Shown here: positions 4,775 through 52,400 of the stretch, in pieces
Layout: the number at the start of each line of letters is the position of its first letter
Position numbering within the stretch: position 1 is the stretch's first letter
From: Antedon bifida
Lineage: Eukaryota; Echinodermata; Crinoidea; Comatulida; Antedonidae
Reading direction: 5' to 3'
NCBI GenBank assembly: GCA_963402885.1
Contig: OY727100.1
Coordinates: forward strand, 8,667,501-8,731,500
Length of the DNA: 64,000 bases
Notes under the pieces: generated by a model
What the model was told of the DNA's origin: nothing
The model's input: only the letters and a program-made list of their open reading frames with translations
Databases searched by the model: none
Position numbers and translations under genes: made by a program

Positions 4775-4792
4775 GTTTATTTTTATATTATT

Positions 4793-7959: not shown

Positions 7960-8149
7960 ACAGATATTGCCTGCTTAGGCCTAGAGGTGAAATATAAGAT
8001 TTGACATCCCCGAGGGAATGATATTATGTTCGAGGGAATATATATATCCCGAAGCGGCAGCTGAGGGATATATAATTCCCCGAGAACATAATATCATCTC
8101 GAGGGGATGTTAAATCTTATATTTTACCGATATAAAAGGCGATATCTGT
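7960..8149. mobile_element. Foldback (MITE-like) element, unit 1
   Basis: Long imperfect palindrome. The inner arms are 7987-8050 and 8065-8128 (roughly 90 percent complementary) around a 14-base loop. The outer arms add ACAGATATTGCCT at about 7960 against AGGCGATATCTGT at 8137-8149. There is no coding capacity. A non-autonomous foldback transposon is the simplest reading. The second copy is at 14101-14290. Confidence 0.7.
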
Positions 8150-8611
8150 TATATTATATAGCCAAGAACAAGTCTGCTGGGTTGGGTGAAGCTAGGCTAG
8201 GCCTCCTATTCTATAGGCCTAGGCCTAGTATTTGTATTGTATGTAAACAAGCCTCCTGCCTAGACACCTTACCTTGCGAAGAATAATATACAGATAATTA
8301 CTAATTAATGATTCCTTGGCAAGAAAATATTCACTTAGGCCTAGGTCGTTTAAATTAACGAAGAATTTCCATCAATAAGCCTATTAATAATAATATTATA
8401 ATCAGGTAGGCCGAATAAACAATTCATCGTCTTCTCTTCGAGGAGCTAGCCGAATCACCGGATGTTCAGCGCGTACTAGTTACTAGGTTACTACCGTGAG
8501 TATTGACCAATCACAAACGGTGTTTCATCACATTTAGGGAGGACTAATAACAAATGAGGGCGCTATGTATGCATAGTTTAAATAGTTTAGATGAATAATT
8601 TCTTCAAGCAA

Positions 8612-8690
8612 GCTGCATGGCGCAACGGTGGAAATGTTGTCTTGCGATGGAGTGACAATTCCACCCGAGTTCAAATCCAGTAGATGACTT
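8612..8690 (+). repeat. tRNA-like SINE head, unit 1
   Basis: An A-box-like TGGCGCAACGG at 8618-8628 and a B-box-like GAGTTCAAATCC at 8667-8678 are spaced as in a tRNA promoter. The stems are weak, so a SINE head is more likely than a tRNA gene. The second copy is at 14753-14831. Confidence 0.5.
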
Positions 8691-8937
8691 TTGTTTATTT
8701 ATCGGCAAACGCGAGTGTTGCCACACGAAAATTACACAGTCAATATCATCGAACTCGAGAATGTATATGTTTAATGACAGGGGACACGATAATTACGCGA
8801 AAATTAATCGGTCAATATCATCGTTCTCGAGGATATATACGATTTACGATCCTCGCAGCGGTAGTCATGTGACGCAGTTTCAACCAATCACGTTCACGTA
8901 TTTACATAGGCTATGTAATATATAATACTATTACCTA

Positions 8938-9085
8938 AATCCAGCAGTATCGACACCAGCCAAAGAAACGCTTAAATTCAAAACCTCAAGAAACCCGCCT
9001 CCAGTACAAGAACTTAGAGAATTTGAAGATAAAATGCTTAATTTAGTACAGAACATCAAGTTTGAAGATAATAAATGCCCGAATG
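8938..9085 (+). pseudogene. Penelope-like ORF N-terminal fragment (unit 1)
   Basis: The frame reads NPAVSTPAKETLKF and PPPVQELREFEDKML, a segment that precedes the reverse transcriptase in this Penelope-like family. It is cut off by the start of the second tandem unit at 9084, so unit 1 carries only this stub. Confidence 0.6.
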
Positions 9086-9300
9086 CAAGAGTTATAATTT
9101 GTGATTTGTAATATTGAAACATAATTTGATTTAATGTAGGCCTACAGGTTTTTTGATACGCGAGTAGATTTTAAAAACTGACACTATTGTTAGTTGAAAG
9201 GCTGGCTACATAACCATTGCACCAAACTCGCGGCGTACACATGGTTGTAGTGAATTAGCCTAATCACACAAGGCATTAAGACAAATAAAGTATATACCAG

Positions 9301-10251
9301 CAGAAACCCGTGCTCCGCATGGTCTTTTTCTACCTTAAATATGCGGTTATATACTATGCATGGGCAAGTATAATAACAGCGCACTCTGATACAAGTACTT
9401 TGACAAATTATTAAAATAAAAACAAATTGTATCACGAATAACATTCGGAACTACTGTATTTACGGCCATTGATTTTTTATACACTATCCTTTCACTTTAA
9501 AATATATGTAGGCTAAAAAATAAAGCAATAGTACAGTGGATGTGGAACTTTAGACTTTACTTTTGACTGTTCAGACTTTACGAAAATGAAAGACGATAAG
9601 GAAAAATTGTGCGGTGTGAATTAGATGATGCGTGCAAACACATAACGAAAGTATAAAATGCCAAAATATATTATTTTGGGTGTTTTTCGTGGTGTATTAA
9701 TTATTTGATACATAGAGATGAAATAAAAAGTGGACAAAAATCGAATAAAAAACACATTCATTTACATTTTATTTTTATTTCACTGATTTTGATATTTTGC
9801 AATTGTTTTTGTATGAAAGATTTTTTACCTACTTGCTACTTTGTAATTAAATTGTGGTCTACCAGTAACCCACACGGTGTTTCTGCCTTAATAATAATTA
9901 AGGAATTAAAAATTAATTAAGGAAGTAGTTCGGCTATCTTTCACATAAGGCATCCATTTGGATTCGTTTTATTTGTGTGTGTGTGGGTTTTTTTGTTGTT
10001 AATTTACATTTTTTTATTTCATGTTTTTTTTTATATTTTGCAATTTTTTTTGTGTGAGGTTTCGTATATCTTTTTTGCTAGTTTTGTAATTACACTGTGG
10101 TCTAATTTTGATTTTTAGCTTTAAGCGGTGATACACAACAATTACACATGTCGCGGATTCGAACTCGAACGTACTAAGCATTGATATTAATGGCCACTGT
10201 GTTTTACCGTGATTTACATTTTACAAATTCACAAAGTCTCACAGTTGTTGT
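9301..10251 (+). repeat. Dispersed repeat family R2, unit-2 copy, left block
   Basis: Copy of 3160-4110 carried in the second tandem unit, with the same relatives at 41750 and 59110. Confidence 0.65.
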
Positions 10252-10718
10252 AAAAAAAGCTCATTAAAATTGTTTTCATGGCTTTCATAACTACAGACGT
10301 GTATGTCTGTATTTGGAAAGAGTTTCTGTCAAAAGCGATCAAAAAAATTATGTCTATATTTAATACTTTTTACAGTAGGGCCTATGCATAATTAATTTTG
10401 GTATTATTTAATACTTCATAAAAATTAAAGTTGATACCACAACTATAATTACACTATTAATATGATATCATGAATATGACAGTAGAAATCACAACAAATC
10501 TAAAAAAAGTACTGCAGTGTTGGACAATAAGAAACTTGGCTTCATTTGGTGAGAACAATTGTAATTAATAATAATTATTATTAACTTTAGCATTGTTGAA
10601 GTTGAATATTATGTGCTGTAAGTAAAGAGTGTACCTTGACGTTATCAGGAAGATGATGACCTGTTTCCATATTTTTTATATTATTATAGATAGAATAAGT
10701 ATAGGTGTTAAAATAAAT

Positions 10719-10915
10719 AATAATACTAATAAAATTGCCTCATGGTGTGACATAGCTAAATAGCACATGTCATTTTTGCAAATTTCATTAGATAGTAGTT
10801 CTCGGGTGGGACTACTCGAACCCACGACCTGAAGTTTACAATCTAATGAAATTTGCAAAAATTACATGTGCTATTTAGCTATGTCACACCATGAGGCAAT
10901 TTTATTAGTATTATT
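10719..10915. repeat. Inverted repeat with a SINE fragment in the loop (copy 2)
   Basis: Unit-2 copy of 4578-4774: arms 10719-10793 and 10841-10915. Confidence 0.8.
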
Positions 10916-10933
10916 GTTTATTTTTATATTATT

Positions 10934-11258
10934 AAGTATTCTCAAATGTACTTAGTATAAAGTACAAATTACGTCAGAGTAGGGCAAAACATCTAATTAC
11001 TCAACTCCCTGACGCAAAAACTACAATTACAATCCTGTTGGTGCAGTACCCGCTGCTTACTTGAGCTCGAATCTAACCACTAGCCATCAGCGCAAGCTCG
11101 GTGGTAAAGGTATGAACGCCAGGCTAGTGATCTGGAGGTCGTGGGTTCGAGTCCCACCCAAGTATTCTCAAATGTACTTAGTATAAAGTACAAATTACGT
11201 CAGAGTAGGGCAAAACATCTAATTACTCAACTCCCTGACGCAAAAACTACAATTACAA
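10934..11258 (+). repeat. tRNA-derived SINE with direct repeats (copy 2)
   Basis: Unit-2 copy of 4793-5117. The tRNA-like head is at 11091-11161. Confidence 0.7.
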
Positions 11259-11420
11259 ACTTCATAATAATTGATATTCAGTTGGGCCTATATTAATACT
11301 ACTAGCCTAGGCCTACAATATCTGCTACGCTAGTCATATTACTGTACATTGATATTCTTACCGTATTTATAAAAAAAAACCTTCAATTCAGGTATTGACT
11401 ACTAAATCTTAATATGTTGT

Positions 11421-11841
11421 AATACAGTTATACATTGAAGTTCGTATTTGGCGCGTGTTGGAGCATGGAGCAGTCAATTAAATGCCGTCACGCATCATTG
11501 AGTTTGTTTACAAATTTTAATGGGGCCATCGTTGCTCAGACCGAGGGCTTATACCGAGAGCCGAATGAGTCCGAAACAAGCCGATGGAGGAACTCTTGTA
11601 CGGAGAAAAAAATCGCTGGCGGTACACGACAAAGGAGGTTGCGAAGTATATACAGTGTAACATGGTCGCTGAGACGTCAAGTGACTGCTAGTTTTTGCCT
11701 TTTTTGTGTGTTTATCCTTAAAATTCAGGAAAGTGACATAGCCTATCTTGAGTGGCCCACCAATAAACATCAGTGTGCCTGTTACGGGCCTCGCATGAGT
11801 CCGAGCGGAGATAGGAGAAACGTCCGAGCGGTTTAATATAT
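11421..11841 (+). repeat. Dispersed repeat family R2, right block, unit 2
   Basis: Unit-2 copy of 5280-5700. Confidence 0.6.
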
Positions 11842-12228
11842 AAAGTTATCAGACAAAGATGAACATAAAAAATGCAGTAAAGTTAAAGTATATTTTGCTC
11901 TCTTGCTGACCTGTGTCTGTTCACCTTCATACCAAAACTAAAACTAAACTTAAAACATATTATCTTAACTATTTAAAAAACCCACCCTGATTCTGATTGG
12001 CCAACAATATTCCAAGTAGTTTGATAAGTTAGCCTTTTTCAAAAATTGAGACAAAATTACCGTTAACTTTGTCTGGGGCTTTTTTTCTAGGCCACATGGT
12101 ACCATATGATATGTGTAACTGTAAGAGGAGTAACTAAAGGTTACTGGATAATAACCTCTATAGTATGAGTTATTATCACAGTGTCAAAAACGCGAACAAT
12201 TTAGTAGCATTAATATATAGATACTGTA

Positions 12229-13881
12229 TTGTTATTCGCAGTGGCTAAAGATACGGTACCGTATCCTAAATTTGAGGCAATCGTTGTACATGGCGGAACT
12301 AATGATTGTTCATCTGATGATGCTCATCTACTACAGGCTATAGACGAGTTCCATAAGTTAATAGAAGACGTCAAAGTGAAGGCTCCTGAAACAAAGCTCC
12401 TGAAACAAATCCACGTGCTGATGAAGAAATATTCCAGAAGAGAGTTGATCGATTGAATGTTAACATAAAAGAAATGGCAAAGGAAATGGATTGTGTGGTG
12501 TCTGACATTGACTTATCTTTTAAACTGTCAAACAATAAATGCGAAACATCTATTTTAAACATAAGTAAACTACATCTAAGTACTCAATAACATCAATGAC
12601 GTTCACCAAATAATTAAAATCAGGAAAACTCATCAAGGTAAGAAGGAATTTCATCCCCGTTTACACCAATCACAAACAAAGAAAACAACAAGATGTTACT
12701 TTTGCGGAGAAACGAATCACGTAATGAAGAACTGTAAGCATGGACAGCCAATCAGATGCAGATCCTGCAAGCAACAAGGCCACAAGGAGAATCATAACGT
12801 ATGTAGACAACATTAGGAGTTTGGCAAAGAAGATGATGCCGTACCCACCATGGGAAGCCATCTGAGCGGTAAAGATACTAATACTAACTTAAGTGTAAAT
12901 AATGATAATATGTACAAATATAAACTAACTAATTCTTATGTTATTAACCATTCTTTTAATTTTGATTTATTGTTTGATGAATGTACTGATTGTTTCTCTT
13001 GTACTGATAATGCAAATATGGTGCAACCCCATAATTATGTTACCTCTGTAAATAATGAGAAACAATATTATGATGATAGTTATGTAAATAATGAACGCAA
13101 TAGTTCACCCATAAAACGAAAAAGAGTTAGAAGAGGGGAAAAAAAATCTTCAAAATTGAATTCAAACATCAAAATTGCCTTTCATTATATTAGAGGATAT
13201 AAAAGTAAGAAAAAGGAAATAAGTTATATAATCCAACAACAAAAATTTGATATCCTTGGAATGGTTGAAACTTTTCTAAATAATGATGAAGTCATATTAC
13301 AAATTACAATTGGATTGGAAAAAACAGACAAAAAGGTGCCAAAAAATCACATGGGGGAATTGGATTGCTTATAAATAAAAATATTAAAATTTTGGAAAAT
13401 GATCGTTTAAATTCACAATCAGATGACTTAGAAAGGTGTTGGACAAAGGTACAATTTGGAGGTAACACAGACTTTATATACCATGTTGCAGTTTGTTACT
13501 TCCCATGTGAAGGGTCTGCTTTCGGAACTTTTTATAATTAAAGATAATAATGAAGATGCCAAAATCATTATCCTTGGGGATTTTAATGGTAAAGTAGGTA
13601 ACATGATTAAAGGGTTAATTGACCTTTGTAATAATGGTGAATTAACTATGCTTAACGCCTCTGACAAATGTGCGCGCTGGTACTTTAACTTGGGTACAAA
13701 AGAACCAAGCCAGCATTTTAGTAGTTCAATTAACTATGACTTTAAAGATTGGGATCCTAGTCGTTTATTAAAAGTATGTAATCATTTTTATCGTATTAAA
13801 GTTTTAATTATTGTAATTTTAAGATTTATCCTTTTGCAGTATGGTCGAAGCGTCCGCCAACCAAAGCGGCCGCCAGTTTAA
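12229..13881 (+). pseudogene. Decayed LINE fragment (ORF1 plus endonuclease), unit 2
   Basis: Unit-2 copy of 6088-7740, with the same frame breaks and the same missing reverse transcriptase. Shared lesions show that decay preceded the tandem duplication. Confidence 0.65.
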
Positions 13882-14100
13882 TATCGTCATTTGTATGGAA
13901 CGCCATGTGCGCTTTAAACTTTAATTGTCGTTGTCAACGTCATGGCCTATGGCGAGTTGAGTTACAGCTGTATGTATGATCAAACCAATAAATATAAGCC
14001 AAATCATGTACTATCGAATCTTTATATTTCTATAATAATTAAGTTTGCCTGCCGATAAATCAATGTATATTTTATTTCATATTTTAATATTAAATATTAT

Positions 14101-14290
14101 ACAGATATTGCCTGCTTAGGCCTAGAGGTGAAATATAAGATTTGACATCCCCGAGGGAATGATATTATGTTCGAGGGAATATATATATCCCGAAGCGGCA
14201 GCTGAGGGATATATAATTCCCCGAGAACATAATATCATCTCGAGGGGATGTTAAATCTTATATTTTACCGATATAAAAGGCGATATCTGT
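14101..14290. mobile_element. Foldback (MITE-like) element, unit 2
   Basis: Unit-2 copy of 7960-8149. The inner arms are 14128-14191 and 14206-14269. Confidence 0.7.
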
Positions 14291-14752
14291 TATATTATAT
14301 AGCCAAGAACAAGTCTGCTGGGTTGGGTGAAGCTAGGCTAGGCCTCCTATTCTATAGGCCTAGGCCTAGTATTTGTATTGTATGTAAACAAGCCTCCTGC
14401 CTAGACACCTTACCTTGCGAAGAATAATATACAGATAATTACTAATTAATGATTCCTTGGCAAGAAAATATTCACTTAGGCCTAGGTCGTTTAAATTAAC
14501 GAAGAATTTCCATCAATAAGCCTATTAATAATAATATTATAATCAGGTAGGCCGAATAAACAATTCATCGTCTTCTCTTCGAGGAGCTAGCCGAATCACC
14601 GGATGTTCAGCGCGTACTAGTTACTAGGTTACTACCGTGAGTATTGACCAATCACAAACGGTGTTTCATCACATTTAGGGAGGACTAATAACAAATGAGG
14701 GCGCTATGTATGCATAGTTTAAATAGTTTAGATGAATAATTTCTTCAAGCAA

Positions 14753-14831
14753 GCTGCATGGCGCAACGGTGGAAATGTTGTCTTGCGATGGAGTGACAAT
14801 TCCACCCGAGTTCAAATCCAGTAGATGACTT
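14753..14831 (+). repeat. tRNA-like SINE head, unit 2
   Basis: Unit-2 copy of 8612-8690, with A box 14759-14769 and B box 14808-14819. Confidence 0.5.
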
Positions 14832-15074
14832 TTGTTTATTTATCGGCAAACGCGAGTGTTGCCACACGAAAATTACACAGTCAATATCATCGAACTCGAG
14901 AATGTATATGTTTAATGACAGGGGACACGATAATTACGCGAAAATTAATCGGTCAATATCATCGTTCTCGAGGATATATACGATTTACGATCCTCGCAGC
15001 GGTAGTCATGTGACGCAGTTTCAACCAATCACGTTCACGTATTTACATAGGCTATGTAATATATAATACTATTA

Positions 15075-17130
15075 CCTAAATCCAGCAGTATCGACACCAG
15101 CCAAAGAAACGCTTAAATTCAAAACCTCAAGAAACCCGCCTCCAGTACAAGAACTTAGAGAATTTGAAGATAAAATGCTTAATTTAGTACAGAACATCAA
15201 GTTTGAAGATAATAAATGCCCGAATGATACCGGCAGACAAATCAAACAACTTCTACCGCATGGACGCGAATGATTATAACGACTTATTGCAAAAAAATAT
15301 AACGAAAACATACAAAAAAGCACCGGCGGATTCTGTAAGTAGTATAACCAAAGACGAGATTAAGATAGCCAAAGAACTACAGCTAGATGATAGGATAGAA
15401 ACAACTGGGAGACGTAATGCCTTTATAACCCTGAACGACCATAAGGAAAATGTTGTAAACAAGCCGACTTGCAGACTAATTAACCCCTCAAAATCAGAGA
15501 TAGGAAAGATAAGTAAACACATCCTAGAAAGAGTTAACAAACATATCGCACGAAAGACCAAGCTTAACCAGTGGAGGAATACTAACGACATGATAGAATG
15601 GTTTAAAGGCATCCAGGATAAGGAAAATCATCTGTTCATATGCTTTGATGTAACAGAATTTTATCCTTCGATAACTTTGGACCTTCTCATTGAAGCCCTC
15701 AACTTTGCTCAAAAATTCACCGATATTACAGAGGAAGAAAGGAAAATAGTAATCAAAGCCAAGAATACACTACTATTCAACGACGAGACAGCCTGGTGCA
15801 AAAGGAACACCACATTCGATACTATGGGTAGCTACGACGGTGCTGAAACATGCGAGGTAATTGGTCTGTTTCTGTTAGCCAAACTAGAACCCAAGAACGG
15901 TAATAACATAGGATTGTACAGGGATGACGGACTCGCGGCATTTAATGAAGCACCTCATGTTATAGATAACGATCGAAGCGAATAAGAAAATTATAAACTA
16001 CCTAGATGTAACGCTTAATCTCAACGATGGAAGCTATAAGCCTTACTTGAAGACAAACAACAAACCACGCTACGTTCATTGCAAAAGTAATCATCCAGCA
16101 TCAATAATTAAGAACATCCCTGAAAGCATAAACAAAAGATTATCAAACATTCCTTCGAATGAAACTGTTTTCAATGAATCAAAGAAACCGTACCAAGAAG
16201 CCTTGTATGAAAGTGGGATACAACCACAATCTGAAGTACAACCCGACCAATACCAGCGCGCAAAATAACATGAAGAAGACAAGGAAAAGAAATATCATCC
16301 GCCTTACAGTGCCAAAAAACCAAAATAGGGCACGAGTTCTTAAAGACTGTAGATGAATGTTTTCCACATAACCATGAGCTAAGAAAAATATTTAATAGAA
16401 ACACCATTAAAATCAGCTATAGTTGTATGCCTAATATAGGGTCTGTAATATCGGCCCACAACAAAAATGTATTACGTAATGATATGCCCTGTGATAACAT
16501 CAAGCAATGTAACTGTCGAAATGAATGCCCATTAGATGGGAAATGCCTAACCAGTGGTGTTGTTTAATAGGCTACAGTAACAACAAATGATGATGATAAA
16601 GTTGAAACATATGTCGGACTAACCGAAAACACATTTAAATGCAGATATAACGCACACAATAGTTCATTCCGTAATGTTAAATACAAAAGCAGCACAACGC
16701 TTAGCCAGTACATCTGGAAGCTAAAAGATGATAACATAAAGTATAACATTAAATGGCGAATAATAAAGAAGTAGTGTAAACCATATTCCAATGTTAACAA
16801 ACGGTGTAATCTATGCTTACAAGAGAAGTATTATATCATATGCAAGCCTGAAACCAGCTCACTTAACCATAGGAACGAATTAGTCAGTGAAGTGTCTATT
16901 AAGGTATCAATAATTTAGATAATAGGAATAGACTGTCCAGGAAATAGAGATGTGTTGTACTTGCTAATTAGCATACTATTGTTCACATAAACAGTTTGCC
17001 TTACAACTTTATTATAGCTTTTTTGTATTCACTTGTGACAATCATTCAGAGCCAAGCACCTGAAGATTGAGTTTATACTCATGAAACAGCCTGTAGTGCA
17101 ATAAAATGTTCAGTTGGTAATTTACTAGCG
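15075..17130 (+). pseudogene. Decayed Penelope-like retroelement (RT + GIY-YIG)
   Basis: The order is an N-terminal piece (PPPVQELREFEDKML, to 15226), a reverse transcriptase (open frame 15203-15985), a linker with CNCRNECPLDGKC, then a GIY-YIG-type endonuclease (about 16576-16870). RT motifs include AFITLNDHKENV, CRLINPSKSEIGK, FDVTEFYPSI and YRDDG (the catalytic YxDD box). The endonuclease has [14 protein letters not shown], the family's variant of the motif, and later cysteine pairs. RT joined to a C-terminal GIY-YIG nuclease is diagnostic of Penelope-like elements. Frames change at 15226, near 15985, near 16225 and near 16350, and stops occur at 16566 and 16774, so it is inactive. About 20-30 residues seem missing at 15226. 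Confidence 0.8.
17058..17090 (+). ncRNA. Hammerhead-ribozyme-like core at the Penelope-like 3' end
   Basis: CTGAAGA at 17060 matches the CUGANGA core. A 4-bp stem (TGAG/CTCA) follows, then GAAAC. Penelope-like elements are known to carry hammerhead motifs in their terminal repeats. Stem III and the cleavage site were not established, so activity is unproven. Confidence 0.4.
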
Positions 17131-17249
17131 TCTTTATCATTTATTTATATTTGCCTCTACATTTTGTATCGAGCACTTTCGCTTTCATGATCTGCGTTAA
17201 ATTTACCACGAATTATATATAGATACTCATGTTCTTTGTTAACGTTTTT

Positions 17250-17293
17250 AGTCGCGTGGACGCGACTCTATAGTTTACTATGTCGGTCGGTTG

Positions 17294-17353
<60 letters not shown>

Positions 17354-18014
17354 GGTATCACTATGCGTTTTATCGCTTTCTGACCTTATCTTGATATCAG
17401 TTTAATCTAGCTAAGTCAATTTTTCACAGAATATTCCTTATGGCCAGGAATCGATGTGGTTATGTTTTCACGGTGCGCAATAAAAAATTACGCGGTCTAC
17501 TCACGATTTAACGAAATCACGTTTGTAATCATATCTTCACAAACATGAATCACAACTAAATAAAATTTGGTACTCATAAATTTCAGGGCATAAATCATCA
17601 TATGGCAATACAATTACGTGCGTAGCGCATGTAACGCATGCGTACGCGCGCTTAAAATTTTCGAAATTTATTTTCGATGAAATAAGAGTACGTTTCAGGC
17701 AATTTTAAGCGTTTACAAAATTGCCATGAGTGCGCATATTTTTGCGCGCGCTCTGCGCGTTAAATGTTATTGCGCACTCTTTTTGCCCGATTTCTGTTTT
17801 CTTGACTTACTTTTCAACTCGAAATTACGTTATACGAGCACGTCAAAAGTGACAGGCTACGCACGTGTAAATTAAAAAAATATAAATGTTTTTAAACATT
17901 TCAACATTTTTAAATATGTTCAGTAATTTCGGTCAGTATAGTTCACTATGTCGGTCGGTCGGTCTGTCGGCCTGTCGGTCGGTCCGGTATCACTATGCAT
18001 TGTAGCACGCGACT
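17250..18014. mobile_element. Non-autonomous DNA element A with palindromic end
   Basis: The left end AGTCGCGT and right end ACGCGACT are inverted copies. The left end is itself part of a palindrome (AGTCGCGTGGACGCGACT). A block with CACTATGTCGGTCGG is near both ends. The interior is rich in GCGCGC strings like those in 62170-62330. A 129-bp relative with the same ends is at 49105-49233. No transposase is visible. Confidence 0.65.
17294..17354 (+). repeat. (CTGT)n microsatellite
   Basis: About fifteen perfect TCTG/CTGT tetramers inside element A, an expansion of the GGTCTGTC motif that is short in its relatives at 17950 and 49160. Confidence 0.95.
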
Positions 18015-18349
18015 TACTGTTGGCCTTGTTCAAACTTAAATTATATTTTTATAATTGTTTATTAATTTTTGAATTTCGATTTTTATTCGTGTTGAGTACA
18101 ATCAGAACCGTCTGTTTCGTTGTTTGTTGGGAGGAAGGTGAGGGTTAAAAAATAAAATAAAATACCATTGTCGCAATGCATTTCTAAGGACATTTTTTTT
18201 AATCAATTAAAATTGTGTAACATGCTGTAAAGAAATGTATTACAGATAGTTTTAAAATGATAGATTTTAAAATATTGATTTGTAATGTATTAATAATATT
18301 TTAGAAAGGGATAGTGGGTATGGAATAAACCACTTTCTTTATAATATAA

Positions 18350-22400: not shown

Positions 22401-25400
22401 AGAATTAGGAAAAGTACATATCCTCATAACAATTTTTACCAACCTATTCCCCATTCACACAAGTAAATTCCACTCTGCGCATCGAAAGCGGACCACGTGA
22501 CTATGATATCGTGATTAGTTTGATAGTCAATATCATTAGACTCTAAACCATCAAAGACAAAGTCAACAACAGGTTCAGTCATATCAATGGTTAGGGGCGC
22601 ACTTATAACTCGAGTTGAGAGGTCAGCTGCATTAGTAGCGATTACAGTGATGTATATTTTGACACCATTTTGTAGCGTAATGTCACTATTGATTCCTTCT
22701 TTTTTGGACCCAGTTGATTTAAATCCTTGCACCTGTGTTCCTCCTGGAATAGTACCTGAAAATCCAGTATGTATACAGTATGTATAAAAGTGTAGATTAT
22801 AGAAAAAAGTTCACAAATATTTAAAAAATATCGTCCTCATAGCATATCTTGAAAAATCAATACCAAATTCTCAACACTATGTTATAATTTTTTAGCAATA
22901 AATGCCAGACAAACAAACATTACTGATTTAAAATTACATTATACATGCAATGTTTTGTTTACCTATTGCCCAAGTGTAATCCACAATCGGACTCTCTGGA
23001 TCAATAAAGTGCCAAATCGCATGTACCGATGACCAATCACGAATTATTTGAGTTTTAAATTGAATGGCACCACTTACAATCACGTTTGGGAAGTTTTTGT
23101 TGTTGGAACTATACGAATATGTTGCAACCTATTGATTGGAAAAAAAGTATAAAGTAATGTTACTAAATGAATACAAATAAATAAACCAATTATAATATAA
23201 ATCATAGTATATCTTTAAAAGTATACATCGATATTCAAGTATATTTGTGTTGATTTGTAACACGAAGAAATATGACATCACTAACCGTTACATTGTCTAA
23301 CAGCATCAAACCATGTGAACTGACAGTAGATAAATAAATATCGCTGTCTATATCATCAGCTGTAAAGAAATACACATGTTTCTGCCAAATGTTTCCATTA
23401 TTGTTATCGTTGTCAGCGTTGTATAACTTAAAAACATGATGCATCCCGGGAGCTTTGACTGCAGCCTCTTGCATAACCAATGGTACTGATGATGACGTAA
23501 CAAAATGTGTGAAAAACGTCAGCATGTAATGATGACCTGGTTCAGTGTTGACAGATTGAGTCAATCCACCATGCACTAACACAAATAGTGTACCATCTTG
23601 AGCTTGTTGTTCAGATGAATACACGACTATACTAGAGTTTATTGAAAGACGCCATCCCGTTGGCAACAGTTCTTCAGATATCCAGTTTGGTGTATCTTTT
23701 ACGTGTCCAATCCAAGGTGTGGCATGCGGACTGTCTTCAAATGAAGGATTCGTCAAGATATTATCTCCGTAATAAACAAGTTCTATGGGAATTGGAGGTG
23801 TTGTATCGATAACAAATCCATCAGATATGGCGATTGGCGAAACATGACCGGCCGCATCGTAACTTCTAACTTTTGCAAAATACCTAAGACCTTTTTGTTG
23901 GAAAAAGTAATAATGAATAGTGAATATCAATAACTTTTTTTTGATGATTAAGAATATAATAATTGCATAATAATAATGATATATATACGTAATAATATAA
24001 GTATACGTGACTTAGTTTGCCTACGACAAGCATTCATTTAATGTTTCTTTCTGTAATAAGAAACAATTGATATTACCAACTTCGAAATTAATTTAAAGAA
24101 CACTCTGTTTTATTATGATTAAGTTAATGAAATATCATATTTATAGTATATTGCTACTTTTTAAATTAGTTGACGAGGCTTATGTTACTCTGAAAAATTG
24201 GTCTTACCTGTTGTAAGATTTCTGGAGAGATATGTTGTGACAAAGTTACCGATCTTCACCTTCTTCCACGTTTTAACGTTACACTCAGTTGGGTTTGTCG
24301 TTTCACCAATACAAGATTCAAAATGACTTATGAAAGATTCAAAATCAATAAATCCATGCCAAGACGTCTTGATAGCAATAGGTGATGACTGGTACTCAAC
24401 ATCATGCAGTTCTAGTATAAACAGATTAACTATTTAGCCATTGCTCTACTTTGTCACAATGCAATCCGCGCAACGTCAATATAGCGTTAACGACCATTTG
24501 GTACTTACTGGCTTAAGGTTAGGGTTAGAGTAACTGCTCTGAGTCGGACAAACATCGACCTAGCACGTTTACACGTATGTTTACGCGTCATAAGTTGTAA
24601 TAGATTTAGAAAATAATTTTTTTCTATTTTGTGAAGGCAATCAACATTCAGATAAGCTCAAAAACTTTTCAATTGCAAATACTTTATAACATATTTTTCA
24701 CGTAAATAATTTTCTCTGTGTTTGTAACTCGATAAAACAAAGATTGTACTGTTTGAAAAGCGTTTGAAAAGCATTTTATTGGGGAAGCAATATTCGGAAT
24801 ATATGTTGCATTGGCATTGGCATAATAATATCTAAGTATAAATAATAGTTTAGTTTTAATGTTGGTTATAATCTATAATTAACGCGGATTAATAATTAAT
24901 TAATAATTATAAATAATTCAGCAAAAATTCCAAACAAACCTTGACCATCAGTAACCGTTCCAGCAACCGGAATTTGTAAATCAACAATAAACCCGTCAGA
25001 TATAACTAGAGTATGGAGACCAGCATGGTTATAACCTCTAACGTTCGTATAGTAACGCTGTTCGTTCTTTAATGTTAATCCTTTGAAGGTATATTGCTCA
25101 ATGTTTCCCGGTATTTCTAGAAATAATCTTACATCTTCACCTAGAATAATAACAACGCATAAGAATAATAATTATAGAAAAATACATCATTGTATACAAA
25201 GGAATTTGGAAGACAAAGAGTGAGATGGCGAGATGAAATAGACAAGTATTGGGGTACAGTGCAGTGGCAGGGAGCAGCTAGAGATCGTGCACTGTGGCAG
25301 AAACATGCTGAGGCTTTCGTCCAGCAGTGGACTGACAACGGCTGATGATGATGATACAAAGGAAGAGACTTAAGTACAAATTAAGTAACTTCTTTATTTC

Positions 25401-28400: not shown

Positions 28401-31400
28401 ATTATTGTTTCTCCACTGTTGGTTGTTTCAACACTAAACTTGGTTTTATCTATCATTACCTGAGTTAGTGGAACATCGACGTCACCATCATTATGTGTAA
28501 ATACTGACAAGTATTGTCGCCTAATACCACTTTCACTGTCACCAAACTCCCAGTTTACTCGTAACAGCGAATTGAAAACCTGATAAAATACAATTTTCTA
28601 CTTAATAAAATAAACTGTTTATTTTAGACCTAAAGTTCTTATTAGTCGAAGCTAAATAAATACAGTTCGTATTATACATCTGTCGACAACTTTGTGCAAA
28701 AAGAAAATTATCTAAAATATTTTGGCTTTCATGACCTACTGACTCACCTGAGTAGATGAGACAACAACTCCTGCTCTTGTTGATATTTCAATTGACTTGA
28801 TTATTGTTGGCACTGTGACATCGACTATGAAACCATCAGACGTTCTTTCCGCCGAAAGACCAACCTTATTATACGCTTTAACTGTCACAAAAATCTTCGT
28901 GTTTAATGGCAGATCAAAATTGAGAGTAGTAAATACAGTCTCCGATAAATGATGCGCCTGTACGTCCATGATGTCACTTCATTCAATTCAATTCAACTAA
29001 ACATTTATTTCTTCCTTCAATAAAATTAGGTAATCATAACAAATTCAAGTAAAATATAAAACATGTCAGTTGATGATAAAAAAAAAAAGTATACAGGTAT
29101 CAATAAAAGGAAGTAGGCAGTGCCCAAGAAGATACAAATCTTGTGGCGGGCCAGCCTATTTACAGACACAGGTAAGACGGTCGAAAATTCAAAAATACAG
29201 GACGTAAGGACAGGGACATAACAAGACAGCAAAAGGAGGAAAAAAAACAACGATCAGAATGACAGCAAATCATATCCTGACCAAGAACTGACAAATGAAA
29301 CTCGAAAAAATTGCCGGAATAAAAAAGAGAGATCAATACTTTGCAATAAGGTATTTCTTAAGTTTGGAAGAAAACGTTTTTATTGAAATAGAGTTGCCGA
29401 TGTCAGGAGGTAAATTATTCCATAAATTGGAGCCGGAAAATCTTATGTTATGTTGAAAATAATTAGTGCGATGTTTCGGTATATGGATCTTAAATTGGTT
29501 TCTTGTACAGTACGAGTGACGAACAGAATTTGGGATGAAAAAATTACACAGATGCTTAGGAAGAAGGAAATGTATTGATGAGTACACGAATATAAATTGT
29601 TGAAAAATATTAATGTCAAAAATATTAAGGAGATTCAAGTTAGAAAACAAATGAGACGAATGAGACCGGGGTGGAACGCCAGATATAATGCGAGTAGCCT
29701 TTTTTTGTATAATGTGAAGTTTGGTGAGATTGGATGGGTAAGTATTTGCCCATACAATGTTACAATAGCTCAGATAGGGAAGAATTAAAGAACAGTAAAT
29801 AATACGGAGGATATTTGGGGGAATGAACGAAGAAAGTCTAAACATGACACCGAGGCTCTTGGAAGTTTTGTTCTCAATTTCTTTAATGTGAGTTTTCCAA
29901 GTTAGACCACTATCGAGATAAACACCTAGAAACTTTGCGCTTTCAACACGTGGAATATCATAATTGTCAATCAGAATCTTATATGGCGTAGTATTGATAA
30001 ATCTGTCTTTTTGGGGACTCCGGAAAAGAATAAAGCTGCACTTTTTATAATTGATAGATAACTTATTACTAGAAAAATAGATGGACATGTGTTTTAAGTT
30101 GGTGTTAAGGTCATCAAAAAGAGATTGGATATTAGGGGAAGAATAGAACACGGTTGTGTCGTCAGCATAGAGAAAAAACGAGAGAAGATTAGAGCATCGG
30201 TATAAATCATTAATGTATAAAATAAATAAAAGTGGACCTAAAAGAGAACCTTGGGGGACACCGCATGTGACTGATGAAAAATGAGATAGGTGGTTTGAGT
30301 ATCTAGTACATTGAGAACGATTTGCTAAGTAACTTTTAAACAAATTTAATGCAGGCCCTCGAATACCATAATGGGATAACTTAAATAAAAGAATATCATG
30401 ATCGATAGTGTCAAAAGCTTTGGAAAGATCAATAAAGAGTCCAATAGCGAAATCATTGCGTTCAAAAGCGTCCACAATTTTGTTAGTAAGGTCAATAAGA
30501 GCCATGGATGTATTATATTTTTTACGAAAGCCGAATTGTTGAGAGTATAAAATATCGTATTTGGTAATAAAATTAAAAGTTCTGTCGTAAATAATTCTTT
30601 CTAGGGCTTTTGAGAAAACAGGTAAAATAGAAATAGGGCGATAGTTCGTTAAGTCAGATTTACTGCCAGATTTAAAGAGGGGTGTTACACGAGCTATCTT
30701 CAATCTGCTTGGGAAAATTCCCTTAGTTAAAGAAATGTTAAAAATATGGCATAAAGGGAGGGAGATAAGTTCAGTAACTTGCTTGATGACATTCGCATGT
30801 AGGTCGTCAATACCGGGGGACTTATTACTCTTGAATGAACGCAAAATTTTAATAACTTCGTCCTCATCGACCGGGGATAAAAAAATAGAATGAATATTTG
30901 GGTTAGGAAGAAATTCTTTATACGATGTGTTTGTCTTGGGTATTTGGTTAGCTAAGGTGGGACCAATTTCAGTAAAAAATGAATTAAAAGAGTTTGCAAT
31001 CTTGGTGGGATCATTTGACATTTCACCATTGCAGTTAAAAAAAGTATTACTTTGTTTGTTAGAGGATTGTTTTATAAGGGAATTAATAGTTTTCCAAGTG
31101 GCCCTGATGTCATTTTTATGTTTAATAAAAGTATTTTTAAAATAATTTGATTTCGCAGTTTTGATAAGACAATTGATTCGGTTGCGACATTGTTTATATT
31201 TTGTTTCATTTTTCGCAGAGGGACGATGAAGAAAGTTTGAGTATAATTTTTGCCTATATTTAATGGACTTAAGAAGAGAGTCGGTCATCCAGGTCTTGAG
31301 TTTAGGTTTAGTTTTTTTGATAGTTTTGTATGGAAATGTTTTATTGTAAAGTAACGAAAAGGTATGTTCAAATTTGTTGTATGCATCATCTGGGTTTTGG

Positions 31401-34400
31401 GTATTTAGAATGTCAATCCATTGTTCACTAGACAATTCTTGACGGAATTTATCAATAGTGATTTGGTTAATGCATCTAAATCTAAATGATTCATCCCTAT
31501 CTGAGCTACGTACATCACAGGAAAAATACGAAATATTAAAAACGGGAAGATGGTCCGAAATATCACTAAATAATAGTCCACTAATACTAGGGAAATCAAA
31601 TTTATTAGTTATAATATTGTCAATCAGTGAGAAAGAGGACTTGGTGATTCTGGATGGTCTATGAATAAGGGGGAGAAAATAATTACTAAACAGAGAGTTG
31701 ACAAATTGCCAAGCTTCATTATTAGATTCATTTTTTAATATATCAATATTGAAGTCACCAAGAATATAATTAATTTTGTTTTCATTGGATAATTTGGCTA
31801 AGATTGAATCAAGTTTATCAATAAACAGAAGCGGATCATTTGATGGGGCTCTATAGATACTTCCTGTAATAATATTTTTTGTATTAGGGCGGATGATTTC
31901 AACAAATATTGATTCGCAAACTAGGGGGTCAAAAGATAGATCATCTCTTATTGAAAATTGAAGGCCATCGCAAATATACAAGGCGACACCGCCGCCGCCT
32001 TTAAAAGACCTGTGATTCGATACAAAAGAAAAACCAGGGATTTTAACCAAGGGATTATCAAATTTTAACCATGTTTCACTAACAGCAATCACATCAAAAG
32101 AAAAATGAAGAGAAGACAAAAGACTCACGATTTGATCAATATTTTTTAGTAGACTTCTTGCATTAAAGTGGATGGATGAAAAACTATTGTCTGAATTTGT
32201 ATTAATTTTGCGGGTAAAATCACTAGGATGATAATAATTTGATATATTAGTGTTGCTATGAAAAAAATTCTGATCAGGATCAATGTTAGATGTGTGATCA
32301 TCATAAACGTTCTGAAACGGAGAGAATAGAGCCTTGGTCAGTCGGTCAGGACATGAGACGTTGTCAGGACAAACAAAAGTCATAAAAAACACGTAGACAA
32401 AAAAAACGGATAATCGATGAAAAGCAAAAAGAAAGGAAATATGGAAATTTGAAAATGTGGGGTAGTTATCAAATATAATATAAACAAATAAAAATCAATA
32501 TAAAAAGCAATTACAGTATTTAGATAATATACAACACATTTATGATTGAAACAATTCAATCAAGAATCAATAATTGCAGAAAAAAATGAGTAAAAAGTTA
32601 GGTATTCAAAAATAGATGATAAAGAGAAAATGAATTCGGAATAAATGATAGGCAATGATAAATTAAGTTAATCTTCATTAAATTGAAGGTAGAAAAGTTC
32701 AATAGTAAATGAAATGTGATAACAGAAATAAATACAGAGTAAAATCAAACAATGTATTTGGTTAAGCAATCAGTTAATGATCATTGAAAGCCATTACATA
32801 ATTATTAAGTTGCATGAAATATGAAAATGTCATAAAGTAATTATGCAGCAATATGGCAATTGCGGTATAGTTAGTTGTAAGAAATGGCAACAGCGAATAA
32901 TTAAAAAGTGTTCCAGCAAAAACGATGACAAGTTAAATAGTTAAGAATTGTTATTGAAAATAATGCTCAAATAAATGCTGACAAATCGTCTCAATGTTCA
33001 GCAACAATTGAGACTGGAAGCAGTAGTTAATTTGATGGAAAAAATTGATTAAGAACAGAGGAAAGTACAGTACTTATCTCTTAGTTGATACATTTCACAG
33101 AAGGCGGAGGAGATCAGATTCAGATTTGATGATGACTTTCTGTTTGTTTTTCTTCAATAGACAGTAAATGTTACCGTCTATGGACCAAGCAGATTCAATG
33201 TTGTCATGGAGGTTAGCCTTACGGAGAAGATCTAGGCGCTTGGATGTAAGGTTTTCGGTTACTAGGTATCCAGAGTGCTTTAATGATCTTTTTTTTCGGA
33301 AGACCTCCGAGCGCGTGCGATAGGATGTAAATTTGATGATTATTGGCCTGGGTTTGGATTTGGCTGCAGATTGGCCGTGTTGTATCCTTTTCCTCCCAAG
33401 TCTATGTGATCGATCAATATCGCATAATTCGATGTTATCCGTTATTTTTGACTTTATTATGTCAAGCGCCAGGTTGTCAGTTTCTTCGATTGATGATTCT
33501 TGGACACCGTGTAACAAGAGGCAATTCCTTCTACTGTATTGCTCAAGATCGTCTATTTTATTACTAAGTGAGTTGTTTACAGCAGTTAGTGTGTTATTAT
33601 GTTCTTTTAAGACTGCAATGTCGCCAGCTGTTGACTCGTAGTCAAGGGCAACGCTATTGTAAACAGATTCACTTACTTTTTCACAGATAGATTTGCTAAT
33701 AGCCGAAATTAGTGTTTTATTTTCACATACTGCATTTACAATCTTGTTGAAAAGTATTGGTGATGATAAAATATGGTTGCTTATGGATGAAGCCACTATC
33801 GAAATAAGCTGAGGGTCGTCGGCTAATAGGTTTTGGAGTTGGCCTAGCCCTTCCGGCGACGATGACATTGTAGGCTGGGACTCCTCCGAAGTAGCTGATT
33901 TAGTCGGCGTCAGCAGTTCCGGGTTAGTTTTATCTTCCGGGCCTGGGCCTACAGGTTTAAGCCCCGTCTTTTCGGCTGATTTGTCTGTACAACGTTTAAG
34001 TTTTGATGATCTCGTGGACATTATTGTATTTGAATAATAACTATATTGCTATTTAGATACCAGTGTTGATTCTAAGGTGCAATTTATGAGACTTGAGTGA
34101 AGAGTTCAATCAACACATTACGTTACGTTTCTCTAAATTGTTGCAAACTTCCGCCTGGTGTTGTCCCAGCCCGCCATTCAAAATGAGACAATCCAGAGTG
34201 TGGGTCATTAAATCCCCACCAATGTGCCTCTAAGACACGTCTATAACAAATGATAAAATAAGCATTGATTGAAGAGCTACATTATACAATGATTCATTTA
34301 TAGTAAATAATTTAACACGTTAAATGCATGAGCTAAAATGTTAAATAATCATTAGACTTAGTTATTCGAATAACACAATGAAGTAACTTTGATAATGCAC

Positions 34401-46400: not shown

Positions 46401-49400
46401 ACCATTCAAATCCTGTATCCACAGAAGCTGACGTCACCTGTAACGCTGTGTCCGTTTTAAATGTTACGTTGTTGATGTCATCAAACAGAATAAACCGCCG
46501 AGCAAGTTGTACATTATCTGCCAAATCAAACACTTCTAGCACTACTGAAAACAGACCTTAAAAAGATAAAGGTTTATTTTACTATTAGGCTATGCACAAG
46601 CTACTGTTTCTCAATAGAAAGCTATGTACAATTTCAAATGTAGACCATTTAAGATCAAACACCCATTTTTGGTGCATTTAAGTTATCGTTTTAGTGACGG
46701 AGATTGAGTTAGAATGAAGATTTAAAGGTCCCTTGTTTCAATCCCACTTTCGGCAGTAGTAAATTACAACGTTTTTAATGCAGTTTTCAGTATCAGTTGT
46801 GTAATGATATGCGTACCAAGGGCCAAGACAATAACGATGACAAAAATGACTAAATATGCAATATATATCTACTTAAGAGTAATATGAATTTAAACAACTA
46901 GATGGTTCTCGAATACACTGTAATTTCAGCGTAAAAAATCTGGCGCTTTTGGGTACCGCAGGACTATACTGCCCTGATTTACAGGGCATTATCTAAAAAA
47001 AATGTAGTAAATGAGCAAACGCGCTTGAGTTTATTCTAAAAAACTTAAAGACAAAGTATTTGTTTTTTAGCTATAATATGTATAAGTGCATACATGGAAA
47101 TAATGCAACATAAATTTTATTTTATTAATTTATTTTTTAGGGGTCAAAATTGAGATAATTCCTTCTTGTAGATTAATCATCCCAACTAATAACGACAAAT
47201 GATTTAACAAACTTTTAATGTACATTACAAAACATATAATAACACAAAAAAATGTATTGTAAGAAGTGATAGAGCAATTGAGAATATTAATTTATTTACT
47301 TAGAAGTGTTGGGTGAGGGGTGTTGGAGGGGTGGGGTGGGGAAGGTTTAGCAGTCTTTTATGGAAATGTAATAATTGTGTACGAAAACACATCATTTGCT
47401 ATGCATTTGATTTGAAGTAAATATTATTTTCTATTATTATTATTGATATACTGTATAATAATAATAAAGTGGGCCTTCGAGTTGTTAATGAAGGCTTGTC
47501 TGACCATTCCAACATTATCTAGAACTTGTTTGAATAACGTGTTCGTATTTCTACCACGCTTCGAGCATTTGTCATCGTGTGCAGCATAATTTCGTTGCTA
47601 GGTTTTGATGAATGTAGATAAATCACATGTCTTACATATATTGTGAATGTCGATGTATGTTTGTATAATACAGTTTATAACATTCATCATCTAAAGTGTT
47701 TTTTCGCCGATAACCATTACGGATCATTCGTCGTAAAAACGTACACCAGGTCGAATCAAGTTTATTTGATTGTGCAGACGTTAATGAATATGTCCCAAGA
47801 GGACATATTCATTAGGAAACTTTTTCATCGCGGTAGCCATAGTATCTAAGGCCGACAGTTTTGCAAATTCGACTATAATTTTCAGGTCCCAGCTGCTGGA
47901 CCCAAAAAACGTCTGGGAAAAGAGAATCTATGAGGGCTCACGGTTGAACGATTTTGAATTCTCGCCCTTTGATTGGTTGACGCGAATCAACAGACTGGAA
48001 GAATTTTCTCAATTGTAATGGCGCCGTAGTTGGCTGCCGATGACACGACGGGACCCTTAGGGGAGAAGAATGTTGTTAAAGAGGTGTAACATCTTAGTCC
48101 ACAGCGCCTTTTATCACTTGTTGCTGGAATTGGCGCTTTACAAATTCGTATATATTATTATTATTATTATGCTTTTACATTTTTATTTTGTTACATGTTT
48201 CCGTGGTAACAAAAACATATTTTCTATAAATTATTAAAAATTGTATATTTATAGTATACAATTAACTAGTGAAAAAATGGGCATGTGATTCATAATTAAA
48301 GAACTATCTTTGATTTGTATGTATTTTTGCGATTAAAGGACATCTTTTTAATAATTAATCATAAATATATCTGAAGAAAGAACAATGATTAATTTTAAAA
48401 TGTCGAGCGGCGAAAACCATTAGGCCTACTAATTAAGTTGAGTTAGATAATTATTTATTAACGATTAGAGCGAATGTACGTTTTCTCCGAATAGAGGTGG
48501 TTTTCACAAATTGTTTTACATTATATAAACATATACAAATAAACTTTATTACTGACAGTTGCTTCTTAACGTTTGTATTAATTAATACTGTAATTACAAA
48601 AAATATAAAGGTTGTAGTGATGTATCGTTACATGTACTGTACTATTTCAATCGACTCTGACGGTGTCAGTTTCAATTAAGTATTACATCGCAATGTTTTA
48701 CTGTGTTTAGTGGTATATTATTTGTAAAACATGAAAACAATTAATAATGTTACATACAAAACACAAATTAAGTTTGTTTAAATTTAATTCAAACAATTGG
48801 TCTCAAGTTTCCCTTTCGGAAGTAATTCCCAGGGAGCTAATTTTAGTTGAGTACATAAATCACCGTGTCTATTTATTCGTTCCATGTATTATTGTCCTGC
48901 GGTATGTACATTTGAAATCGCCAGTTTTTTAACGTTGAAATTACTATGTATTCGAGAACTCTGAGGGCACGACGACGCGAGCGAAGCGAGCGTACCATCT
49001 AGTCAGGGAAATTGAGGGTGAATAAACCTGACTCATATGGTTCGTTGCCACTATGTTACAGCGGCTCCAATCACAATTACCAAGACCTACTGGCAATTAT
49101 TTTTAGTCGCGTGGACGCGACTCTATAGTTCACTATGTCGGTCCGTTGGTCGGTCGGTCTGTCTGTCGGTCTGTCTGTCGGTCTGTCTGTCTGTATGTCG
49201 GTCCGGTATCACTATGCATTGTAGAACGCGACTTAATGGATGTTGGCCTTGTTTTCAGTACATAATTGTTTAAAGTTACGTTACAGCTCAGTTTGGTTAG
49301 CGTTAGACTTAAATACTTAAAGTATATGTTTCAATCCTGAGTTTTGGCATCAATTAGTGAATCGTTTACTAATTAATTTTTCATAATTATTGTTGATGCC

Positions 49401-52400
49401 AACGCTTTTTTAAGAATATCACTTGGATGTCATTACATCTACCTATTTACACTAATATAGTTAAACATCGTATACTGTATTTTTCTAGCAAAACAGTTAA
49501 ATCTTCTATCAACTAAAGCCGAAGTATAGTCATTGTCCCAGGGACCATTCTATAGTCACCACCACCGGATAGCTATTCTTCATTAGAGCTTCAATGAATG
49601 GATGACTAGTTTGGAGTAGGAACGCTAATAGATCAAATCCAGTACCGTTCTGATTTGACGATCATTCGGAAAATTACCTCATGACAGGGTAAGTCCCCGA
49701 TTACAGACTGGTATCACAACACTGGTAAGTTATTGTGAAGGGAAGATTGCGTGATTGTAGTTGAGCAGTAACGTAGATAAACCTTTCAGGTATAATACTA
49801 GGCGACGGTTTGTTGAAGTGTAACTCATGACCCGTTTAATCCAAATGTATGTTTAGGTATAACATTGAGTAGTAATAATAATACTCTAATATAATAGCTG
49901 ATACATACCAGGATGAGGTAACATGATATGAGTGCCCCCATTGTTGTAACAAGTTGCAACCGGATTTCCTGTCAGAACTTCTTCTAGTTTATCGTTAGAC
50001 TGCACTGACATTTGTCTAATTTCATACTGATATCGCTTGACATCAGAATCAAGATCAGTCCACCCTGACCAACTTACAGAAATGTTCCCCTGAAAATTGA
50101 AATTGAAATACTTACTAAATAAAAAGAATGGTTGATTCACTACACTAACTGGTGTGTGTCAAGGTGACAGTAAAAGAATACCTGTTTTGTGATATCTTCT
50201 CCACAGTTAAATGTTTGCGAAGAACAAGATGACATGACTGCGCAATGAGCTGGGTCAATGAAGTCAAAAACATAATTCCCGGTTCGTCTGAGAATGCGTC
50301 CATTGTAATAACGATTGGACCGTCCGTTTGTGTCACGGTTCTCAACAGTTACATAACCACCATTTTCTACATCTATATCAATTGTGATTCTACAAAAAAA
50401 CATAAATATAAATTACCAAATCCGTCTCACACACAAGCAAGAAAATACATAGCTTACGTTAAAATAAATATGATATTTGGTAAAGGAAGGTTGTTTGTTG
50501 AATGAGTCATTTTAAGGTCACATAACACTTATTCAGTTTGACCAAAAATTGGATCGGAAAAAAAAATATTTATCTGATAAAACCGTAGTTTCAAAGAAAA
50601 CAGTAGCAACCAGAAGCACATTGTTCAGAAGTGTGTTTGAATGTTTAAAATTTGAAAAAAAAGGAGATTTTTTGCCGATATTCGTTAACAAGATAAATTG
50701 TGTCGTCTGCTGCAATATTTACCTATCACCTGTAGTTAGTGTCCATCCTGTTAAATCCAACGTATCCACACCGCCACAATGGTAGACGCTCTGTTGTGGG
50801 GCAGTTTTATCGGCTGGATCACTACATGGAATTCTGGCAACCTCTTTAGAATTGGTATTACCTAAGGTGTTTTTATAAACATGAATTAAAAAATAAAAGC
50901 AACACTGTTTCAGTTAAAATTCCAAATGTACCACAAATAGTGACCATGAATTACAGTATACTAGATGGTCGTGCCCACAGTTGGTTCTCGAATACACAGT
51001 AATTCCAGCGAGAAAAAAATGGAGATTTCAAATGTACGTACCGCAGGACTATAATACATTGTCGTTTACAGAAGCGAATAAATAGACACAATGATTTATG
51101 TAGTCAACCAAACTTAGAACCATGCGAATTACTTCCGAAAGAGAAACTTGTCACAAAATGAGTCACACATTTTGTATTTGGACTGATATAAACAAACCCA
51201 ATTTGTGTTTTGTATGTAACATTAGGGTTGAGGGATGAGGAAGAGGATAGGTACAACGAGGAACAATTTTTACGCTGCTGCTCTAGCCCGCTACGTCACA
51301 AGAGATGACTCATTTATAAGTTGAAAGCAAGCAGCAGTTATAGTACTAGAGACTGACGTTTTTGCTAAAATGCATACTCGAATATAATTTATAGGTCCCA
51401 GCTGCTGGACCAAAAAAACGTCTGGGAAAAGAGTCTATGAGGGCTCACGGTTGAACGATTTTGGATTATTGCCCTTTAATTGGTTGACGCGAATCAACAG
51501 ATTGTGAAAGAATTTCCACTTGTACCAACTTTTAATTATTAATTAATACAAACGTTGAGGAGCAAATATCAGTAATAAAGTTTATTTGTATATTATATGT
51601 TTATAATCTAACAGTAGGGCCTACCCACACTCACAGTAATAACATTAATTTGTATATTTTGTTTATATTATATCTAACAGTACCAACACTCACAGTAAGA
51701 AATTTGCGATTCAAATGGCGATCAAAAGTGGTTAATACCTATTTACAGTATTGTACAGCATTGAAATACTATTTATGTTTATTCTCCAAGGGCCCATAAA
51801 TTTACCTACTTGTGTTAAACCATGGAGGTAGGCCTATACCTCTATGGTTAAACCAAATAATTTGGAATGTTCCATTAATCGCAAATCAATACATTTGTAT
51901 AAACGTATATTAATTAAATCTATCAAAATAGTATTTGTTTAAGACAATCGGCCTGTCTTTAACATTATGATGCTGTATTCGAGCTGATCAACCGGTTTTC
52001 AACTATTTATAACAATTATCGTAGGAGGAGATGTGAAAATGCGAAGCATCCCCGTATTATTGTGTGCGGGTATTTTTCAAGATGGACATCTATTAGACAG
52101 TGTATACCACGATCGTAAAACACCTGTATTTGGGGCAAATCGTTGAACCTAAATTCGTTTTAATTGTCAATACTAATTATCTACCTCAATTTAATTAGTA
52201 AACAGGGTTACATCAGTACCAAAAGTATGAACTTTATATGCCATCGAGTAAAAATTCTAGAAGTAAGGCGCGATTTACCGAATTTTCCCCTTACGTAAAT
52301 TTATATATAGATAACATATCCTACATCTACATTGTCGCTTTAGTTTTTTTTTTCATGACTTAGATTGTGAAATCCACATAAGTAGGATAATATAAATCGT

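What the first reader, a model, noticed from the sequence alone, without database searches (positions are those of the whole stretch)
28977..34126. Intact LINE fills exactly the gap between two halves of one module
Coding segments 33 and 34 read as one Fn3-like module, and the space between them is almost entirely a full-length LINE. A GTAACG donor (34121-34126) and an AG in the LINE tail (28977-28978) would splice the element out in frame. Either the LINE broke an exon, it landed in a tiny intron, or it has been turned into an intron. The acceptor has a poor pyrimidine tract.
Basis: partly seen in the sequence, partly recalled or inferred. Interest (0 to 1): 0.75.

Follow-up and report, generated by a model that had tools for sequence, protein, structure and literature searches.

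The report
Recent LINE insertion inside coding exon
A full-length jumping element (LINE) with both of its genes still open has landed in the middle of one coding exon of a large, probably animal, gene and most likely breaks that copy of the gene; this is an ordinary kind of mutation, here resolved to the base.

Summary
The LINE occupies 34146-28981 (minus strand, same sense as the gene), flanked by a 5-nt direct repeat, GAAGT (34151-34147, 28980-28976). Taking out the element plus one repeat restores a single 322-nt exon reading ...GTTPGGS|DIMDVQ..., which completes one module. So the element broke an exon. A pre-existing tiny intron does not fit: the empty site leaves no spare bases. The spliced-out 'new intron' is possible in frame but poorly supported: its acceptor scores below all 21 gene acceptors compared, and it would add seven residues. 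Unspliced, the mRNA meets TAA after seven LINE codons, a TGA before the 3' junction, and an AATAAA. Skipping the exon alone shifts the frame. 1,361 open LINE codons put the insertion below about 1.7% substitutions per site, so it may be polymorphic. Most likely: a recent target-primed insertion making a truncation allele. No other copy of the LINE, orthologue or RNA was seen; the own-genome search did not complete (17 tries).

The parts
34147..34240 (-). Upstream half of the broken host exon (starts after a tatag acceptor; ends ...GTTPGGS)
34147..34151 (-). Left copy of the target-site duplication GAAGT
28981..34146 (-). LINE, 5,166 nt, same sense as the host gene
   Evidence: the 5' end is inferred from module and repeat, not from a second copy
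33095..34021 (-). LINE ORF1, 308 aa from its first ATG, with stop; long helices predicted at low confidence, weak L1 RBD-like match (12.9 bits, below cut-off)
29333..32383 (-). LINE ORF2, 1,016 aa from its first ATG, with stop (frame open from 32494); reverse transcriptase
34123..34125 (-). TAA in the host reading frame, after LQQFRET
34125..34126 (-).
   Evidence: 2.95 bits
29004..29009 (-). AATAAA, possible poly(A) signal of the LINE
28981..28996 (-). Short-repeat tail TTGAATTGAATTGAAT
28979..28981 (-). TGA in the host reading frame just before AGT GAC
28977..28978 (-).
   Evidence: -2.03 bits
28976..28980 (-). Right copy of the target-site duplication GAAGT
28748..28975 (-). Downstream half of the broken host exon (DIMDVQ...SSTQ, then a gtgagt donor)

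Best explanation
A full-length two-ORF LINE was inserted by target-primed reverse transcription directly into a continuous 322-nt coding exon, duplicating GAAGT. The insertion is recent. Its most likely effect is loss of function of this allele: translation continues for seven LINE-coded residues (LQQFRET) and stops at TAA; the LINE brings an AATAAA in sense, so the transcript probably ends in or just after the element, or is degraded. Shown from sequence: the module-restoring cut, the duplicated flank, the stops, the open LINE frames. Inferred: the insertion mechanism, truncation or decay of the RNA, and that the insertion may be segregating or hemizygous.
For: Removing 34146-28981 plus one GAAGT gives an in-frame exon reading GTTPGGS|DIMDVQ. 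The same scan on four inferred ordinary introns of the gene, tested module left out, puts their joins at rank 2 of 1109, 2 of 1524, 14 of 1649 and 3 of 1346. 30 of 10,000 cut pairs have a flanking repeat of 5 nt or more, and the best join is one of them. A toy gene model run without the LINE returns one 322-nt exon 34240-28748; six exons from 35242 to 27778 read open for 415 codons. Recent: 1,361 LINE codons without a stop, under about 1.7% substitutions per site at 95%, indels not counted. Loss of function: TAA at 34125, TGA at 28981, AATAAA at 29009; skipping the exon shifts the frame and stops after about 8 codons.
Against: No second copy of the LINE was available to fix its 5' end (genome search did not complete). 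The duplication is short, and its GAA also occurs in the tail unit. A sister module (m255) has an intron whose aligned position falls on the left edge of GAAGT, so this region of the module can carry an intron. With the LINE left in, the toy model did use the GTAACG donor. An in-frame splice and an in-frame skip of three exons exist on paper. No RNA, orthologue or second individual was seen.
Confidence: 0.8

Rival explanations
1. The LINE is spliced out as a new intron: donor GT at 34126 carried by the element's 5' end, acceptor AG at 28978 supplied by the target-site duplication; the protein gains LQQFRET and stays in frame.
For: The pair is in frame, stop-free and keeps the whole upstream part. 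The donor scores 2.95 bits, in the top 14% of 3,640 GTs on this strand, and a toy model with the LINE present used that donor. Donor in the element, acceptor in the duplication, and added codons are all described for introners (PMC9860276, passages).
Against: Acceptor -2.03 bits: below all 21 gene acceptors compared (minimum 1.3), though those came from a model that admitted none under -1; 84% of 2,863 AGs on this strand score as well or better. Pyrimidines 41% upstream, against 47-82% in the 21. The product ranks 93 of 698 by module fit. The AATAAA lies upstream of the acceptor.
Confidence: 0.1
2. The transcript skips the broken exon together with the two exons before it (268 + 187 + 322 = 777 nt), giving a shorter in-frame protein.
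For: The resulting junction 35623-28579 is in frame and open in the stretch tested. Insertions in mouse exons sometimes give frame-preserving skips (PMC6466679, passages).
Against: Needs three exons skipped at once; skipping the broken exon alone shifts the frame. No RNA seen.
Confidence: 0.04
3. The LINE landed in a tiny pre-existing intron between two exons.
For: Introns occur within other modules, and that of m255 aligns with the left edge of GAAGT.
Against: The empty site has no spare bases; there is no GT at that edge (it reads GAAGTTTG); the only in-frame pair using a host-flank GT (34189) deletes 15 residues.
Confidence: 0.03
4. The junctions are an assembly artefact, for example a collapsed LINE placed in the wrong site.
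For: The window does hold a 6,143-nt perfect tandem duplication that could be an assembly error.
Against: A misassembly would not be expected to give an exact module-restoring cut with a matching flanking repeat.
Confidence: 0.03

Closest known systems
Exonic LINE insertion mutations, e.g. mouse L1 in Frem1 exon 17 and Reln exon 59 (PMC6466679, passages read)
   Same: A LINE in a coding exon; for Frem1 the table gives transcript and protein truncation (for Reln only the place was in the passage seen).
   Different: Different LINE lineage and host; here the consequence is inferred from sequence, not from a phenotype.
Jockey-superfamily LINEs (CR1/L2 lineages) with type II ORF1 (PMC4120745, passages read)
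   Same: Two ORFs, reverse transcriptase in ORF2, ORF1 with a long predicted helix and a weak L1-type RBD match, short-repeat tail instead of poly(A).
   Different: Clade not assigned: no reference reverse transcriptases were at hand; the ORF1 model is of low confidence (mean pLDDT 43.6).
Introners and transposon-made introns (PMC9860276, PMC3443670, passages read)
   Same: Insertion into an exon with a short target duplication; a candidate splice pair with donor in the element and acceptor in the duplication.
   Different: Weak acceptor; the duplication is GAAGT, not the AGGT that would allow exact removal; element is a 5.2-kb LINE; no evidence of splicing or of a family of such introns.
LINEs inside Drosophila coding exons (PMC2911107, passages read)
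   Same: LINE within an internal coding exon.
   Different: The three cases there were stop-free, with length divisible by three, and added protein sequence; this one has in-frame stops at both ends.

Membership tests
LINE (non-LTR retrotransposon) | Reverse transcriptase | tested here: met
   RVT_1 E=6.4e-34; human L1 ORF2p chains by phmmer, best E=2.7e-18, and R2 chains
LINE (non-LTR retrotransposon) | APE-type endonuclease | tested here: inconclusive
   SETWL, GDFNID and SDHLPV seen by eye in ORF2 (that these are endonuclease motifs is recalled), but no Pfam endonuclease hit at E<=1
LINE (non-LTR retrotransposon) | Target-site duplication | tested here: met
   GAAGT on both sides, at the best-scoring join
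Jockey superfamily, CR1/L2 lineage | Position in a reverse transcriptase tree | not testable with these tools
   No LINE relatives in the collections searched: none confirmed in viral contigs, five bacterial loci at 31-33% identity
Jockey superfamily, CR1/L2 lineage | 3' end in short tandem repeats rather than poly(A) (recalled for these lineages; octamer microsatellite for CR1 in PMC4316615) | tested here: met
   TTGAATTGAATTGAAT at 28996-28981
Introner / transposon-made intron | Usable splice sites at or near the ends | tested here: inconclusive
   In-frame GT-AG exists; acceptor below the 21 gene acceptors compared
Introner / transposon-made intron | Spliced in vivo; several copies acting as introns | not testable with these tools
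   No RNA; own-genome search unanswered (17 calls)
SOS-splicing target (DNA transposon) | Terminal inverted repeats (requirement recalled; PMC12779559 not held) | tested here: not met
   First 100 nt against reverse complement of last 100 nt: local score 10, reached by 636 of 1000 shuffles

The most novel reading that the evidence does not exclude
An intact, potentially active 5.2-kb LINE is tolerated inside a coding exon because the host splices it out whole, with a donor carried at the element's 5' end and an acceptor made by the target-site duplication: a LINE behaving as an introner, adding seven residues to the protein.
Probability: 0.06. Interest if true: 0.8.

Novelty: new member of a known kind. 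Interest (0 to 1): 0.3.

Why it matters
It is a base-resolved case of a complete LINE in the middle of a coding exon, with a predicted empty site that one PCR can test. If it segregates, it marks recent LINE activity in this species and a null allele of a large multi-module gene. If it is spliced out, it would show an intron being born from a LINE.

Tried and rejected
Reading the 20 nt before the donor as host coding (GGSLQQFRET resembles GGTQVQGFKST of a sister module): not preferred, because leaving them out gives the best-fitting module. Tiny intron: no spare bases in the empty site. SOS splicing: no inverted ends. Exact removal by the GT and AG inside the two GAAGT copies (34148 with 28978): out of frame, since that pair is not among the in-frame pairs.

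Led nowhere: other copies of the LINE in the window; viral contigs (3 and 12 stretches matched a pattern, none confirmed); prokaryote genome contigs (5 loci in bacterial records at 31-33% identity, not pursued); Rfam (two tRNA matches only); ORF1 structure (low confidence); Fn3 identity by Pfam or PDB sequence. The organism was not identified; 'animal' is an inference from the introns and the LINE type.

Weak points of the controls. The toy gene model uses recalled splice frequencies, was trained on hand-picked exons, and reports spurious tiny exons. With the LINE left in it used the GTAACG donor, read LINE ORF1 as coding and re-entered the host at 28957; its total was then higher (1377 against 1338), which is not a comparison of the two hypotheses. 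The 22 donors and 21 acceptors were hand-picked from that output, its tiny exons dropped, so the acceptor set has the same floor. In one search I used a wrong end for one downstream exon and the chain showed stops; I chose another donor by hand (28177) and it read open. The ten sister modules were picked and spliced by hand.

Papers: PMC13247085, PMC4120745, PMC3747384, PMC4316615, PMC2911107, PMC9860276, PMC3443670, PMC10294476 and PMC6466679 were seen as passages only; the other papers as listings; PMC12779559 is not held and what it requires is recalled.

Full report
Observation. On the minus strand, coding segments at 34240-34127 and 28976-28748 flank a LINE in the same sense. The LINE has ORF1 (308 aa from its first ATG at 34021) and ORF2 (first ATG at 32383; frame open over 1,053 codons), both without stops. 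ORF2 matches RVT_1 at E=6.4e-34 and human L1 ORF2p and R2 chains in the PDB. The 3' end is a short-repeat tail, TTGAATTGAATTGAAT, with an AATAAA 7 nt before it.

Boundaries. The bases GAAGT end the codons GGC GGA AGT on the left (34151-34147) and reappear right after the tail (28980-28976). Dropping 34146-28981 and one GAAGT gives RVLEAHWWGFNDPHSGLSHFEWRAGTTPGGS|DIMDVQAHHLSETVFTTLNFDLPLNTKIFVTVKAYNKVGLS... in frame. The element would then be 5,166 nt with a 5-nt duplication, and the 20 nt before the donor belong to it. A caution: GAA also occurs in the tail unit, so the duplication alone is modest evidence.

Test of the boundary. I built an HMM from ten other modules of the same gene, hand-picked and some of them partial, and scored all stop-free in-frame joins from 100 x 100 cut positions. 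Of the 10,000 cut pairs, 30 are flanked by an identical repeat of 5 nt or more. As a control, the same scan with the tested module left out put the joins of four ordinary introns at ranks 2 of 1109, 2 of 1524, 14 of 1649 and 3 of 1346; the LINE exon came 1 of 784 there. The control introns are themselves inferred from sequence.

Host exon. A small home-made gene model, run with the LINE removed, returned one exon 34240-28748 of 322 nt. Six exons from 35242 to 27778 then read as 415 codons without a stop, after I corrected one exon end by hand. Introns in sister modules lie at varied places; that of m255, aligned by hand, falls 5 nt before the corresponding cut, that is on the left edge of GAAGT. 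This is the best point for a former intron, but there is no GT at that edge and the empty site has no spare bases.

Consequences. Reading into the LINE adds LQQFRET and stops at TAA, 34125-34123. On the other side the codon before AGT GAC is TGA, 28981-28979, so an acceptor upstream of the duplication would run into a stop. Of 48 nearby GT-AG pairs, two are in frame and stop-free; 34126/28978 keeps the whole left part, 34189/28978 loses 15 residues. The 34126 donor scores 2.95 bits (1 of 22 gene donors lower) and the 28978 acceptor -2.03 (0 of 21 gene acceptors lower; 84% of 2,863 AGs on this strand score as well or better). Skipping the exon alone shifts the frame and stops after about 8 codons; skipping it with the two exons upstream keeps the frame. 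The AATAAA in sense orientation makes early polyadenylation likely (inference). In mouse, exonic LINE and SINE insertions are listed with truncation, early termination and skipping, in some cases with the frame preserved (PMC6466679, passages).

Age. About 4.3% of single substitutions in the two ORFs would make a stop; none in 1,361 codons (ORF1 from its first ATG, ORF2 over its whole open frame) gives an upper limit near 1.7% per site at 95%, indels not counted and no selection after insertion assumed. The insertion is therefore recent and may be polymorphic or hemizygous; that was not tested.

Kinds. It works like, and by the features tested is, an exonic LINE insertion. The LINE resembles Jockey-superfamily elements with a type II ORF1 (PMC4120745, passages), but its clade could not be tested, the endonuclease rests on motifs seen by eye, and the ORF1 model was of low confidence. 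The intron reading matches an architecture described for introners, donor in the element and acceptor in the duplication (PMC9860276, passages), but nothing shows that it is spliced, and GAAGT is not the AGGT target that allows exact removal (PMC3443670, passages). SOS splicing is unlikely, as the ends are not inverted repeats.

Limits. The own-genome search did not complete in 17 attempts, so there is no second copy of the LINE, no alternative haplotype and no species name. No orthologue or RNA was available. The module was not matched to Fn3 by Pfam.

Noticed in passing
2943-9085 and 9084-15226 (+): A 6,143-nt stretch is repeated head to tail without a single difference, each copy with a tRNA-Thr(AGT) call; either a very recent duplication or an assembly error.
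   Followed up: partly
15188-16567 (+): Reverse-transcriptase-like reading frames (by eye Penelope-like, recalled; the one frame scanned, 15188-15982, had only two weak unrelated Pfam hits) start at the end of the second copy of that duplication.
   Followed up: no
17237-17387, 17950-18019 and 49100-49238: GTCT/GTCG microsatellites share the flank GGTATCACTATGC, as if carried by one mobile element.
   Followed up: no
23238-24011 (-): An exon of the same gene shows a weak DUF642 match (E=0.00066, below the curated cut-off).
   Followed up: no
2158-2512, 51946-52314 and 60221-60563: Related dispersed repeats on both strands, 88-95% alike, probably one more mobile family.
   Followed up: no
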